64,000 nucleotides of DNA from an uncultured Treponema sp. (GTDB lineage Bacteria > Spirochaetota > Spirochaetia > Treponematales > Treponemataceae). Of this stretch, positions 12,457-54,008 are shown one piece after another. Position numbers and translations under genes: made by a program. A model generated the notes under the pieces. The model saw only the letters and a program-made list of their open reading frames with translations. It did no database searches and had not been told where the DNA came from. The stretch is taken from NCBI GenBank assembly GCA_949299755.1, contig CASGBA010000001.1, forward strand, positions 1 to 64,000, given 5' to 3'. Within the stretch, counting starts at the first letter, position 1. Every line of letters starts with the position of its first letter.

Positions 12457-13566
12457 ATGTCAATAAACTGCGGTATTGTAGGTCTCCCCAATGTGGGAAA
12501 ATCAACTATCTTTTCGGCTCTGACGGCGGCACCGGCAGAAGCGGCGAATTATCCCTTTTGCACCATCAACCCGAATGTGGGCATTGTGGATTTACCTGAT
12601 TCAAGGCTCGATTATCTTTCTGAAAAATTTTCCCCGAAACGGAGGATTCCCGCTTCAGTTGAATTTGTGGATATAGCAGGTCTTGTTAAGGGTGCCTCAA
12701 AGGGAGAAGGGCTCGGAAACCAATTTCTGGCGAATATCAGGGAAGTCGGTGTAATAGCCCATGTTGTCCGCTGCTTCGACAACCCGGACATTATCCATGT
12801 GAATAACAAGGTGGATCCGGCGGATGATATTGAAACCATAAACATGGAGCTGGCCTTTGCCGATCTCGATACGGTCAACAAACGGATTGAGAAGGCTGAA
12901 CGGGCCGGGCGGGTCATGGGAAAGGACGAACAGAAAAAAGCGGCTGTGGTTCTTTCCGCCCTTGCAAAAATAAAACCCCTTCTGGAAAACGGCAAACCGG
13001 CGCACATTGCGGAACTTACCGATGCGGAAAAGGAAGCCGTTTACGACTGCCACCTGATCACAATGAAGCCCCAGCTTTATGTATGCAATGTGGATGAAAA
13101 CGGCGCAAAAAACGGAAACACTTATTCTGACATAGTGAAAAAAATAGCGGAGGAAGAAAAATCCAATGCGGTTATTATCTGCGGAAAGTTTGAGGCGGAT
13201 CTTGCCGAAATGGATAATCCGGCGGAGCGGGCGGATTTCCTGAAAGAGCTGGGGCTTGAAGAAAGCGGGCTTGCGGTTCTTGCCCGGGCCGCTTACAAAC
13301 TTATGGGCTTACGGACATTTTTCACCGCCGGGGAAGATGAATGCAGGGCATGGACAATCCATGCGGGGGACACCGCCCCGAAGGCAGCCGGCGTGATTCA
13401 TACCGATTTTGAAAAAGGCTTCATAAAGGCTGAAGTCTATTCCTTTGAAGACTTTAAAACCTGCGGTTCGGAGGCTGCCATAAAGGCCGCCGGAAAATAC
13501 CGCATCGAAGGGAAGGAATATATAGTCCAGGACGGGGATATCATGTTCTTCAAATTTAACGTTTAA
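12457..13566 (+). CDS. ychF: YchF/OLA1 family redox-responsive ATPase
   Basis: Obg-family P-loop protein that binds ATP and associates with ribosomes. The 369 residues fit the family (about 363). It shows GLPNVGKST (residues 8-16), the G2 region YPFCTINPNVG, FVDIAGLVKGASKGEGLGNQFL (Walker B/G3), and a C-terminal TGS domain with FFTAGEDECRAWTI, GVIHTDFEKGFIKAE and VQDGDIMFFKFNV. An upstream in-frame start at 12394 was rejected because it overlaps the promoter and is absent from the family. Confidence 0.95.
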   Translation: MSINCGIVGLPNVGKSTIFSALTAAPAEAANYPFCTINPNVGIVDLPDSRLDYLSEKFSPKRRIPASVEFVDIAGLVKGASKGEGLGNQFLANIREVGVIAHVVRCFDNPDIIHVNNKVDPADDIETINMELAFADLDTVNKRIEKAERAGRVMGKDEQKKAAVVLSALAKIKPLLENGKPAHIAELTDAEKEAVYDCHLITMKPQLYVCNVDENGAKNGNTYSDIVKKIAEEEKSNAVIICGKFEADLAEMDNPAERADFLKELGLEESGLAVLARAAYKLMGLRTFFTAGEDECRAWTIHAGDTAPKAAGVIHTDFEKGFIKAEVYSFEDFKTCGSEAAIKAAGKYRIEGKEYIVQDGDIMFFKFNV

Positions 13567-50053: not shown

Positions 50054-50083
50054 CATCCGCGGCACCTCCAGGAGCCGCGGATG
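50054..50083 (+). terminator. Hairpin after the OmpA-repeat gene
   Basis: Ten-bp perfect stem CATCCGCGGC (50054-50063) with GCCGCGGATG (50074-50083). The U-tract is only TTGT, so termination may be weak. The right arm abuts the -35 of yeiH. Confidence 0.5.
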
Positions 50084-50112
50084 TTGTAACTTGGTAACGT
50101 TTATATTATACT
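50084..50112 (+). promoter_or_regulatory. Leaderless-type promoter of yeiH
   Basis: TTGTAA (50084-50089), 17-bp spacer, TATACT (50107-50112), then 6 bases to ATG 50119. Confidence 0.75.
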
Positions 50113-50118
50113 CTGGCC

Positions 50119-51183
50119 ATGAAAACTTCATGCAGCCTTTCCAGTGTAATATCAGACACCATCCCCGGATTATTCCTTTGCCTTGCTGTAGCCGTTCCAT
50201 CTTATTTTCTCGGGAACCTATTTCCGATAGCGGGCGGTCCGGTTTTTGCAATCCTCATAGGCATGGTTATCACCATTTTTATAAAAAAGAAGGATGTCTT
50301 AAAAACCGGGTTCACCTTTTGTTCAAAAAAAATACTCCAATATGCGGTTATTCTTTTGGGCTTCGGAATGAATATCGGGACTATTCTGGAGAAAGGGGCA
50401 GAATCCCTTCCTGTGATTTTATCCACAATAACAGCGGCCCTTGTTTCAGCTTTTATTGTGGCGAAACTTATGAGAATCCCGCAGAAAATTTCAATCCTTA
50501 TTGGAGTGGGTTCTTCCATATGCGGAGGATCGGCTATTGCCGCCGCAGCTCCTGTTATAGGGGCCGATGATGATGAAATCGCCAGATCAATTTCAGTCAT
50601 ATTTTTATTCAATGTAATTGCGGCGTTGATTTTCCCTTCTTTGGGAGCCGCACTGGGACTTACAAATGAAGGTTTCGCCCTTTTCGCCGGAACCGCTGTA
50701 AACGACACATCCTCTGTCACTGCGGCGGCTTCAGCCTGGGATGGAATCCACGGCAGCGACACCCTGAGCGGAGCCACGGTAGTAAAATTAACCAGAACAC
50801 TGGCGATAATCCCCATCACCCTTGTGCTTGCTGTGTGGCGTATGCACAGCGAAACAAAAAAAACGGAAAAAGTTGAGGGGCAAACGGAAAGCGAAAGTAC
50901 CGGCGGAAAATTCAGCATGGCTAAAATTTTCCCTTGGTTCATCCTATGGTTTGTGGCGGCGTCCATCATTACAACAGTTTTTAACCTTCAAAGTGAGATA
51001 ACTTCGCCGCTAAAGTGGCTGAGCAAGTTTTTCATAATTACAGCCATGTCCGCCATCGGTCTTAACACAAACATTGTTGAATTGGTAAAAAAAGGCGGTA
51101 AACCCATACTGCTGGGCTTTATTTGCTGGCTCTGTGTTTCCGGAGTCAGCCTTTTAATTCAAAATATTTTGAAACTTTGGTGA
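50119..51183 (+). CDS. yeiH: YeiH/UPF0324 family membrane protein
   Basis: A 354-residue inner-membrane protein with ten to eleven helices of the PSE (putative sulfate exporter) family. Conserved marks are LGFGMNIGTIL, the GVGSSICGGSAIAA loop, AGTAVNDTSSVTAAA, and the C-terminal AIGLNTNIVELVKKGGKP. In several bacteria members are under control of sulfur or oxidative-stress regulators; the transported substrate is unproven. The S1-domain gene follows after 15 bases. Confidence 0.9.
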   Translation: MKTSCSLSSVISDTIPGLFLCLAVAVPSYFLGNLFPIAGGPVFAILIGMVITIFIKKKDVLKTGFTFCSKKILQYAVILLGFGMNIGTILEKGAESLPVILSTITAALVSAFIVAKLMRIPQKISILIGVGSSICGGSAIAAAAPVIGADDDEIARSISVIFLFNVIAALIFPSLGAALGLTNEGFALFAGTAVNDTSSVTAAASAWDGIHGSDTLSGATVVKLTRTLAIIPITLVLAVWRMHSETKKTEKVEGQTESESTGGKFSMAKIFPWFILWFVAASIITTVFNLQSEITSPLKWLSKFFIITAMSAIGLNTNIVELVKKGGKPILLGFICWLCVSGVSLLIQNILKLW

Positions 51184-51198
51184 AAGGGGAACATTGGC

Positions 51199-52389
51199 AT
51201 GGAAAACAGCGGTAAAACACAAAACGATTTTTTTGACGCACAACCGGGGGAAAAGCCTTCCGTTGATATACGAAGGCTGGCCAAGGGGGATAAAATAGAT
51301 ACCACGGTGGCAGGAATTTCCGGCGGAATAATTTTTCTTGATTTAAATGCTAAAACAGAAGGAGTGCTTGACGCATCTGAATTCACAGATGAGAACGGAT
51401 TAATAAAGATCCAGGAAGGGGACACTGTTTCAGTTTATTTCATGGGAGAAAGCCCAGACGGTCCGAAATTCACTTCCAAATTCAACACGGAAAATTCCGG
51501 AGTTGAAGTCCTGGAGCAGGCTTATAAAAACGCAATTCCGGTGGAAGGAACCGTGGAAAAAGAAATAAAAGGCGGTTTTGAAATCAAACTGGGGAAAAAC
51601 CGGGCTTTTTGTCCCTGGTCACAAATGGGAGGCAGAAAAGACTCAAAAGAAATGGAATCTGTCCCTGCCGGAAAAAAGATGACGTTTTTAATACAGGAAT
51701 TCAAGGATAACGGTCGTAACATAGTTGTTTCCAACCGCGCTTTTCTGGAGCAGGAAAACAAAAAAATCATAAAAGAAATACAAAAGGCTGTGAAACCAGG
51801 TTCTGAAGTGGAAGGAACCGTTGTTTCCATTCATCCTTTCGGAGCCTTTGTGGATATAGGCGGGATACAGGCTCTTATCCCTGTGTCCGAAATATGCCGC
51901 CGAAAAATTTCCGGTATTGAGGAAATGCGGGAAATACTGCCGGAAGGAACAAACGTCAGGGCTATGGTTATCAGAACCGACTGGGAACGGGAAAAAGTTT
52001 CCCTCAGTCTTAAAGCCCTGGAAAGGGATCCCTGGCAAGGCGTGGCGGGAAGATATTCTCCGGGAGACAAAATTTCCGGACCGGTTTCAAAAACGGCGGA
52101 CTTCGGTGTGTTTGTCACACTGGAAGAAGGGGTTGAAGGACTTGTCCACATAACAGAGCTTGAAAAAGCGGGGCTTGTACCGGACAGTAAAACCAATATC
52201 AGGAAGGTATTCAGAACCGGGGAAAAATTCAACGCTGAAATCCTGTCCGTGGACGAAAAAGGCAGAAGAATTTCCCTTACGCCGGCGGAGAGTAAAGAGC
52301 AGACAGAAGCGACCCAAAAGTATTTTGACAGTTCCCACGGAGAAGAAACTTACAATCCATTTGCGGAATTATTGAAGAAGAAAAAGTAG
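51199..52389 (+). CDS. S1-domain RNA-binding protein (RpsA-like)
   Basis: A 396-residue protein with four S1-type OB folds: about residues 15-95 (DIRRLAKGDKIDTTVAGIS), 105-180 (VEGTVEKEIKGGFEIKLGKN), 195-280 (GSEVEGTVVSIHPFGAFVDI, then GGIQALIPVSEI) and 283-365 (GDKISGPVSKTADFGVFVTL). It is shorter than six-domain S1 and may be a spirochaete S1 homologue or an RNA-binding regulator. It lies between yeiH and hemerythrin, and AAAGGGG precedes its ATG. Confidence 0.85.
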   Translation: MENSGKTQNDFFDAQPGEKPSVDIRRLAKGDKIDTTVAGISGGIIFLDLNAKTEGVLDASEFTDENGLIKIQEGDTVSVYFMGESPDGPKFTSKFNTENSGVEVLEQAYKNAIPVEGTVEKEIKGGFEIKLGKNRAFCPWSQMGGRKDSKEMESVPAGKKMTFLIQEFKDNGRNIVVSNRAFLEQENKKIIKEIQKAVKPGSEVEGTVVSIHPFGAFVDIGGIQALIPVSEICRRKISGIEEMREILPEGTNVRAMVIRTDWEREKVSLSLKALERDPWQGVAGRYSPGDKISGPVSKTADFGVFVTLEEGVEGLVHITELEKAGLVPDSKTNIRKVFRTGEKFNAEILSVDEKGRRISLTPAESKEQTEATQKYFDSSHGEETYNPFAELLKKKK

Positions 52390-52412: not shown

Positions 52413-52826
52413 GTGAAAAAAATCGAATGGAATGACGATTATCTGATTCAAATCCCGGAGATAGACATCCAGCATAAAAAGCTGCTGGCGGTTTCGAAGG
52501 AATTTTATGATATTCTGACCGGAACCCAGGAAAACTATAAAACAAATATGTCCAAAATTCTTGTCAGTCTGACAGATTATACAAAATATCATTTTTCGAA
52601 CGAAGAGGATTTCCTGAAAAAATACAACTATCCGGGAATATCAGCGCACAAAGCGGCCCATGATAATTTCATAATGGAATTGAATGCCCAGGTGCGGAGG
52701 CTTTCAAACAGTTCTATTGAAGAAGGAAAAAGATTTTATGAATATATTGTTTCCTGGATTTTAACCCACATAGCTAAAGCAGATAAAATATGGGCTAATT
52801 TCATCCGTCCGAAACTGGAAAAATAA
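52413..52826 (+). CDS. Bacteriohemerythrin
   Basis: A 137-residue four-helix O2-binding diiron protein. Ligands are visible as IDIQHKKLL, YHFSNEEDFL, SAHKAAHDNF and LTHIAKAD, matching the H-H-x3-E-H-x4-H-H-x4-D hemerythrin set. Single-domain hemerythrins store or scavenge O2 in anaerobes and microaerophiles. The start is GTG behind AGGAGG. It ends at a terminator that also contains the PerR promoter. Confidence 0.93.
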   Translation: MKKIEWNDDYLIQIPEIDIQHKKLLAVSKEFYDILTGTQENYKTNMSKILVSLTDYTKYHFSNEEDFLKKYNYPGISAHKAAHDNFIMELNAQVRRLSNSSIEEGKRFYEYIVSWILTHIAKADKIWANFIRPKLEK

Positions 52827-52849: not shown

Positions 52850-52887
52850 AAAAAAACTCCTTCAACTATTGACAGGAGTTTTTTTTT
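52850..52887 (+). terminator. Terminator of the hemerythrin gene
   Basis: A7 ACTCCT-type left arm (52850-52861) pairs with AGGAGT and T run (52874-52887), loop of 12 bases. The loop contains the -35 hexamer of the next promoter. Confidence 0.85.
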
Positions 52888-52897
52888 GGATTATTTT
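52869..52897 (+). promoter_or_regulatory. Leaderless-type promoter of the PerR gene, nested in the terminator
   Basis: Perfect TTGACA (52869-52874), 17-bp spacer, TATTTT (52892-52897), then 7 bases to ATG 52905. The -35 is in the terminator loop and the spacer is its U-tract. Confidence 0.7.
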
Positions 52898-52904
52898 ATC
52901 AGTA

Positions 52905-53375
52905 ATGATTCTTAATAAGCAGGAACAAACAAAATCACGCCTCACTAAACAGAGGGCGGCAATGTTGGCCCTTCTCCGGTCCACAAAAGAACACCCTTCC
53001 GCCGTCTGGTTGTATGACAAAATGAAGGAGACCTTTCCCTCCATCAGCCTGGGAACAGTGTACAGGAATCTGACGGTATTGGCCCGGCAGGGTGAAATAA
53101 GTATCCTGCACAGCGGAAACGGATTTGACCGTTTTGACGGCGATACATCAAACCATAGCCACATTACCTGTACCATTTGCGGAAATGTAAAGGATGTATC
53201 CATCCCCTTTCCGGAGGAAGACACGTCAGAAAAATCCGCTGAAAAGGAAAGTGGATACAGGATACTTTCCCACAGGTTGAATTTTTACGGAATATGCCCC
53301 GAATGCCTGCGGAACCAGGAAACCGCGGCAGAAAAGGGAGCACATAGGGAGCCAAAAGAACCGGAAAATCCGTGA
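52905..53375 (+). CDS. perR: Fur-family regulator, PerR-like
   Basis: A 156-residue metal-dependent repressor. Residues 1-80 form the winged helix (LTKQRAAMLALL, HPSAVWLYDKM, ISLGTVYRNLTVLARQGEI), followed by the metal-site NHSHITCTICGNV and the structural zinc pair in CPECL. The first CxxC (CTIC) and second CxxC (CPEC) form the Zn site; HSH is in the regulatory site. Position beside rubrerythrin and hemerythrin supports peroxide sensing, but Fur or Zur is not excluded. The frame reaches to a TTG at 52869 that is the -35 itself, so ATG 52905 is chosen. The C-terminal 20 residues are charged and extend past the family. Confidence 0.85.
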   Translation: MILNKQEQTKSRLTKQRAAMLALLRSTKEHPSAVWLYDKMKETFPSISLGTVYRNLTVLARQGEISILHSGNGFDRFDGDTSNHSHITCTICGNVKDVSIPFPEEDTSEKSAEKESGYRILSHRLNFYGICPECLRNQETAAEKGAHREPKEPENP

Positions 53376-53432: not shown

Positions 53433-54008
53433 ATGAAATCATTGAAAGGAACCCAGACAGAAAAAAACATTATGGCTGCGTTCATTGGTGAATCCCAGGC
53501 ACGCAACAAATACACATTCTGGGCAAGCAAGGCTAAAGAGGAAGGTTACGTGCAAATCCAGCTGGCTTTTCTTGAAACAGCAGATCAGGAAAAAGAACAC
53601 GCAAAGAGACTTTTCAAATTCCTTGAAGGCGGAGAAGTTTCCCAGGAAATCAGTGCCGGTGCCGGAATCATCGGCGACACAAAGGAAAATCTCCGTCAGG
53701 CTGCCGCAGGGGAAAACCATGAATGGGAACATATGTATCCCGATTTCGCAAAAGTAGCCCGGGAAGAAGGATTTGACGCCATAGCCACCGTCATGGAAAA
53801 CATCGCCATCGCTGAAAAACAGCACGCAAAACGCTATGAAGCTTTCCTCCGCCACCTTGAAAACGGTGACATGTGGGTTCAGGATACGCCCACCACATGG
53901 AGATGTTTGAATTGCGGTTTCATCTATGTGGGCAAAGAAGCGCCAACGTCCTGCCCGGCTTGCGCCCATCCCCAGGCTTATTTTGAACGCCTGGCTGAAA
54001 ACTGGTAA
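53433..54008 (+). CDS. rbr: Rubrerythrin
   Basis: A 191-residue peroxide-reducing diiron protein. Residues 1-145 form the four-helix bundle with the iron ligands in AAFIGESQARNKY, ETADQEKEHAKR, NHEWEHMYPDF and NIAIAEKQHAKRY. Residues 155-191 are a rubredoxin-like FeS4 centre (CLNCGFIYVG ... CPACAHP). The start follows AAGGAG (53421-53426). A strong terminator follows. No promoter is obvious, so it may be cotranscribed with perR. Confidence 0.96.
   Translation: MKSLKGTQTEKNIMAAFIGESQARNKYTFWASKAKEEGYVQIQLAFLETADQEKEHAKRLFKFLEGGEVSQEISAGAGIIGDTKENLRQAAAGENHEWEHMYPDFAKVAREEGFDAIATVMENIAIAEKQHAKRYEAFLRHLENGDMWVQDTPTTWRCLNCGFIYVGKEAPTSCPACAHPQAYFERLAENW

What the first reader, a model, noticed from the sequence alone, without database searches (positions are those of the whole stretch)
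52850..52905. PerR promoter built inside the terminator of the hemerythrin gene
Seen: the intrinsic terminator (52850-52887) has a 12-base loop that ends with TTGAC, and the perfect TTGACA -35 (52869-52874) lies in the loop plus one stem base. The T-run of the terminator is the 17-bp spacer, and TATTTT plus 7 bases lead to ATG 52905. So one 56-bp piece ends one gene and starts a leaderless next one. Inference: readthrough from yeiH-S1-hemerythrin and fresh initiation at perR compete, and polymerase bound at the promoter would block readthrough.
Basis: partly seen in the sequence, partly recalled or inferred. Interest (0 to 1): 0.62.

Follow-up and report, generated by a model that had tools for sequence, protein, structure and literature searches.

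The report
Self-regulated perR promoter fused to terminator
In this uncultured spirochaete, the stop signal for one gene group overlaps the start signal of a neighbouring oxidative-stress regulator gene, whose first codon lies in the middle of what looks like the regulator's own DNA-binding site; it is a neat, compact example of switch types that are already known.

Summary
The layout is real. A 12-bp hairpin with a T9 tract (52850-52887) follows the hemerythrin gene, and a perfect TTGACA (52869-52874) lies inside it. A 17-bp spacer, TATTTT (52892-52897) and 7 bases lead to the perR ATG (52905), with no Shine-Dalgarno. One correction: the "12-base loop" mostly pairs, leaving a 3-base loop and a bulged C.

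The promoter is probably genuine. TTGACA-16/17-TATNNT or a close variant lies before perR in over a dozen related spirochaetes. In the window the palindrome is at 52896-52918, matches a pattern built from relatives with one mismatch (0 in 100 shuffles), and has the ATG at its centre. Three other genomes share this ATG-in-operator form. I read it as a PerR-type operator giving autorepression of perR and rubrerythrin. Leaderless starts look common in this genome.

The terminator overlap was seen only in this genome. Its nearest relative (G001) has neither terminator nor palindrome, and G002 lacks perR. Overlaps are not enriched genome-wide. Functional coupling (readthrough competition, polymerase block) remains untested. 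Salmonella tufB-secE is a published precedent for terminator-promoter overlap.

The parts
50119..51183 (+). yeiH-like transporter gene, probable first gene of the upstream operon
   Evidence: PF03601 5e-77; TIGR00698 YeiH family below cutoff
51199..52389 (+). S1-domain protein gene (ribosomal protein S1-like)
   Evidence: PF00575, 3 stretches
52413..52826 (+). bacteriohemerythrin gene, GTG start; last gene before the hairpin
   Evidence: TIGR02481 and NF033749 above cutoff
52850..52887 (+). intrinsic-terminator-like hairpin: 12-bp stem 52850-52861/52874-52885, bulged C52873, inner 4 bp, 3-nt loop 52866-52868; T9 tract 52879-52887; folds equally well on the minus strand
   Evidence: fold -13.7 kcal/mol, z -5.4 on plus, -13.9 on minus; single copy in the genome
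52869..52874 (+). -35 element TTGACA of the perR promoter, inside the hairpin
   Evidence: conserved before perR in relatives
52892..52897 (+). -10 element TATTTT (spacer 17 bp, 52875-52891)
   Evidence: relatives have TATAGT, TATCAT, TATGAT, TATTCT and similar in the same place
52896..52918 (+). palindromic putative PerR operator TTATCAGTAATGATTCTTAATAA, 8 of 11 arm positions symmetric, overlapping the -10 end, the predicted start of transcription and the ATG
   Evidence: matches relatives' pattern with 1 mismatch, expected 0 by chance; best such site in the genome
52905..53375 (+). perR-like Fur-family regulator gene (156 aa), predicted leaderless start
   Evidence: PF01475 1e-25; best solved match B. 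subtilis PerR 2fe3, 4e-24, with its metal-ligand positions conserved
53433..54008 (+). rubrerythrin gene, probably cotranscribed with perR
   Evidence: PF02915 3e-28; perR-rubrerythrin order kept in nine or more relatives

Best explanation
The 52850-52918 segment is a compact junction between two transcription units. (1) The hairpin plus T9 tract ends most transcripts of yeiH-S1-hemerythrin (inferred). (2) TTGACA/TATTTT is a sigma-70-type promoter that starts a leaderless perR-rubrerythrin mRNA at or within one or two bases of ATG 52905 (promoter supported by conservation, exact 5' end inferred). (3) The metal-bound PerR-like protein binds the palindrome 52896-52918 and blocks its own promoter; oxidation releases it and induces perR and rubrerythrin (inferred from the operator's conservation and the PerR ligand residues). 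Because the -35 lies inside the hairpin, terminating and initiating polymerases must use the same DNA in turn; that exclusion follows from geometry, but it has not been shown to be regulatory. The overlap probably arose in this lineage on top of an older autoregulated promoter (inferred).
For: Hairpin z -5.4 followed by nine T. TTGACA/T-16/17-TATNNT or close variants at a nearly constant distance from a palindrome before perR in genomes of several genera. Palindrome found in the window with a pattern taken from relatives, 0 expected, and unique at that quality in the genome. Same ATG-in-palindrome arrangement with M-I-x-[ND]-K start in G034, G107 and the spirochaete MAG L111. PerR metal ligands H37, D85, H91, H93, D104 and four Zn cysteines of B. 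subtilis PerR all matched in the alignment (residue roles from general knowledge). perR-rubrerythrin order conserved. -10 elements ending 6 or 7 bases before an ATG far above background, 25 against about 3.4 expected; none of the 27 starts at 5-8 bases has a Shine-Dalgarno. Leaderless mRNAs are known to be common in a spirochaete, Leptospira interrogans (PMC5243855).
Against: No transcript data. The -10 (TATTTT) is only 4/6. The stem has three G-C pairs in its outer 12 bp and depends on its A/U tracts, so termination may be partial. The window palindrome is imperfect (8/11). G001, the nearest relative, keeps hemerythrin-perR-rubrerythrin without this promoter or palindrome, so this control is not indispensable. 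PerR scores below the NCBIfam PerR equivalog cutoffs.
Confidence: 0.72

Rival explanations
1. One reading: the overlap is itself a regulatory device. Readthrough from hemerythrin and initiation at perR compete, and polymerase (or PerR) bound at the promoter blocks readthrough.
For: A promoter footprint would cover the whole hairpin and T tract; the operator begins 9 bases after the T tract. Salmonella tufB-secE terminator-promoter overlap affects expression and fitness (PMC7055797).
Against: The overlap is seen in this genome only, and overlaps genome-wide are no more common than uniform placement predicts.
Confidence: 0.25
2. The overlap is a neutral by-product of short gaps between genes: two independent signals share bases, with no coupling.
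For: Overlap frequency not above chance; not conserved; gap is only 78 bases.
Against: There are 23 free bases between the hemerythrin stop and the hairpin, so the overlap was not strictly forced. The 5' arm mirrors the -35 and spacer closely, a long perfect stem.
Confidence: 0.5
3. Recycling: polymerase released at the T tract stays on the DNA about 18 bases from the perR start and re-initiates there, so hemerythrin transcription feeds perR.
For: Post-termination diffusion and re-initiation at nearby promoters shown in vitro for bacterial polymerase (PMC6978380; PMC11347151).
Against: Not yet demonstrated in vivo according to PMC11347151; no data for spirochaetes; no conservation of the arrangement.
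Confidence: 0.12
4. The hairpin is not an effective terminator, and hemerythrin-perR-rubrerythrin is mainly one operon, as G001's layout suggests, with the perR promoter secondary.
For: G001 has hemerythrin and perR with a short gap and no hairpin or palindrome. Core stem is only -6.5 kcal/mol.
Against: Nine consecutive T after a perfect stem, z -5.4; promoter conserved in more distant relatives.
Confidence: 0.15

Closest known systems
Inter-operon terminator-promoter overlap (tufB-secE and neighbouring operons, Salmonella; Brandis and Hughes)
   Same: A terminator of one operon overlaps the promoter of the next, co-directional one
   Different: There it joins housekeeping operons of an anciently conserved cluster and affects fitness (PMC7055797); here it is in one genome, the -35 is in the hairpin, and the downstream mRNA is predicted leaderless. 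The primary paper (PMC6735719) was not held, so geometry could not be compared
PerR autoregulation (Bacillus subtilis type, PerR box TTATAATnATTATAA; recalled from general knowledge)
   Same: Fur-family protein with PerR ligand residues; palindrome with AATnATT core over its own promoter; peroxide-defence gene next to it
   Different: Extended 23-bp palindrome centred on the start codon of a leaderless mRNA; binding not tested
Leaderless mRNAs of spirochaetes (Leptospira interrogans, PMC5243855)
   Same: Start of transcription at or next to the start codon, common genome-wide
   Different: Here inferred from sequence only; a different branch of spirochaetes

Membership tests
Intrinsic terminator | Stable hairpin directly followed by a T tract | tested here: met
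   -13.7 kcal/mol, z -5.4; T9
Intrinsic terminator | RNA 3' end in the T tract | not testable with these tools
   needs 3'-end mapping
Sigma-70-type promoter | -35 and -10 hexamers at 16-18 bp | tested here: met
   6/6 and 4/6, 17 bp, conserved in relatives
Leaderless gene | mRNA 5' end at the start codon, no Shine-Dalgarno | tested here: inconclusive
   -10 ends 7 bases before ATG and no Shine-Dalgarno in range; 5' end not mapped
PerR (peroxide regulator) | Fur-family protein with regulatory-metal residues H37, D85, H91, H93, D104 and structural CxxC pairs | tested here: met
   all matched to 2fe3 in the alignment; Pfam FUR 1e-25
PerR (peroxide regulator) | Passes a curated PerR equivalog model | tested here: not met
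   best NF052545 118.7 bits, cutoff 180; so the name stays PerR-like
PerR (peroxide regulator) | Peroxide-dependent binding to its operator | not testable with these tools
   only the site's conservation was tested
Inter-operon terminator-promoter overlap | Terminator of one operon shares bases with the promoter of the next | tested here: met
   TTGACA 52869-52874 lies within hairpin 52850-52885
Inter-operon terminator-promoter overlap | Overlap contributes to expression | not testable with these tools
   needs reporter constructs

The most novel reading that the evidence does not exclude
One 69-bp module integrates three controls: PerR on 52896-52918 represses initiation and, meeting the leading edge of polymerase at the T tract, also strengthens termination of the hemerythrin operon; on oxidation it opens both routes at once, and polymerase that terminates there is recycled into the leaderless perR-rubrerythrin promoter.
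Probability: 0.12. Interest if true: 0.65.

Novelty: new variant of a known kind. Interest (0 to 1): 0.4.

Why it matters
It shows how tightly regulatory signals can be stacked: terminator, -35, -10, operator and start codon within 69 bases. A leaderless start codon in the middle of the regulator's own operator ties coding sequence to DNA-binding specificity, since the operator's right half encodes the first residues after the start methionine. It also gives a natural template on which to test whether terminating polymerase feeds an overlapping promoter.

Tried and rejected
Start at TTG 52869 (the ORF caller's first start): rejected, since it would make the -35 coding and add a hydrophobic N-terminus not seen in relatives. 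Hairpin as a repeated or mobile element: rejected, single copy. Other PerR operators in the genome: none convincing; two 3-mismatch sites on contig C4 lie in what looks like a CRISPR array, and the C16 site lies before a second Fur-family gene. First genome-contig scan with PerR gave no relatives. Several loci were first read on the wrong strand and were redone. An automated palindrome picker chose spurious palindromes in the G000 row and some others (G094, G007, G026); those rows were read by eye. Brandis 2019 primary paper not held. Searches for papers on PerR boxes over leaderless start codons found nothing close.

Full report
What is in the sequence. The hemerythrin gene ends at 52826. A hairpin follows at 52850-52885 with a T9 tract to 52887. 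It folds at -13.7 kcal/mol, z = -5.4, and as well on the minus strand. The -10 TATTTT is at 52892-52897, 17 bp on, and ATG follows 7 bases later at 52905. The nearest Shine-Dalgarno-like GGAG (52875-52878) ends 26 bases before the ATG, too far to serve it.

What the genes are. The upstream genes are a YeiH-like transporter, an S1-domain protein and a bacteriohemerythrin; downstream are a Fur-family regulator and a rubrerythrin. The regulator's best solved relative is B. subtilis PerR (2fe3, 4e-24), and its metal-ligand residues are all matched in that alignment. It falls below NCBIfam's PerR cutoffs, so I call it PerR-like. The genome is a spirochaete judging by its rubrerythrin relatives.

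Conservation of the promoter and a missed operator. Homologues were taken from related genomes and their upstream regions compared. In G034, G107, G004, G105, G094, G073, G091, G070, G063, G149, G191, G180 and G152, TTGACA is followed 16-17 bp later by a -10-like hexamer; in G033 it is TTGACT. Most have an odd palindrome with an AATnATT-like core shortly after the -10, for example G004 TTATCAGGAATCATTCCTGATAA, 11 of 11 symmetric. In the window the site is TTATCAGTAATGATTCTTAATAA, 52896-52918. A pattern written from relatives finds it with one mismatch and nothing else in the window, expected 0.00; genome-wide it is the best site. The perR ATG is exactly at its centre. G034, G107 and the MAG locus L111 share that arrangement, with proteins starting MIPNK, MIINK and MILDK against MILNK here. 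Other genomes start further on, several behind a Shine-Dalgarno. In the automated table the palindrome chosen for G000 and for some other rows is a spurious one; these were read by eye.

Leaderless starts. In 464 kb of this genome, promoter-like sites cluster with the -10 ending 6, 7 or 9 bases before an ATG (15, 10 and 10 hits against 1.7 per position). Internal ATGs show no such peak, and none of the 27 starts at 5-8 bases has a Shine-Dalgarno. G002 shows the same tendency in a smaller sample. Leaderless mRNAs are common in Leptospira interrogans (PMC5243855). So a leaderless perR is ordinary for this organism.

Is the overlap special? G000 and G001 PerR are sisters on the tree (98/93), yet G001 has hemerythrin and perR nearly abutting with no hairpin, promoter or palindrome, and G002 has hemerythrin then rubrerythrin with no perR. 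In more distant relatives the promoter stands without an overlapping terminator of this kind. In 464 kb, 1 overlap at 10/12 or better was found where uniform placement would give about 2, and 3 at 9/12 or better where it would give about 14 (my arithmetic; the terminator set is loose). The overlap thus has neither conservation nor excess behind it. Terminator-promoter overlap between operons is published for tufB-secE in Salmonella, where interrupting it reduces fitness (PMC7055797).

Most likely working. Shown: the layout, the conserved promoter and palindrome, the enrichment of leaderless-type starts. Inferred: termination in the T tract, transcription from about 52904, autorepression by PerR, release by peroxide, cotranscription with rubrerythrin. 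By geometry, polymerase terminating at about 52886 would cover part of the promoter and its front would reach the operator, so exclusion is expected; whether it is used for control is open.

Verdict. The better-supported control element is the operator over the start codon.

Noticed in passing
window 50084-50119: yeiH, the first gene of the upstream operon, also looks leaderless: TTGTAA-17-TATACT ends 6 bases before ATG 50119, with a G+C-rich hairpin (about 50058-50081) just upstream.
   Followed up: partly
464 kb of the window's genome (window, L071-L090): -10 elements ending 6, 7 or 9 bases before an ATG are strongly enriched, without Shine-Dalgarno: leaderless mRNAs look common, also in G002.
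   Followed up: partly
L002, about 1640-1690 (G000 contig C16, near 12747-12769): A second Fur-family gene (37% identical to this PerR) has a long near-perfect inverted repeat around TATAAT just upstream, TTATGTCCTTATTAGGATATAATACTAATAAGGACATAA.
   Followed up: no
L191 from about 820 (G000 contig C4, near 12990): A direct-repeat array that looks like CRISPR, repeat GTTGCAGGTTGACCAGAAAAATTAATCAGTTATAAT; each repeat holds TTGACC-16-TATAAT, a promoter-like sequence.
   Followed up: no
L061 (G002): Same-genus G002 keeps S1-hemerythrin-rubrerythrin but has no perR between them.
   Followed up: partly
L112 upstream of 3001: Rubrerythrin in MAG ADurb.Bin215 has no perR beside it, but an AT-rich partly symmetric stretch TAATGATTACAATTATTCCTAAT lies just before its Shine-Dalgarno, a possible PerR-type site.
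   Followed up: no
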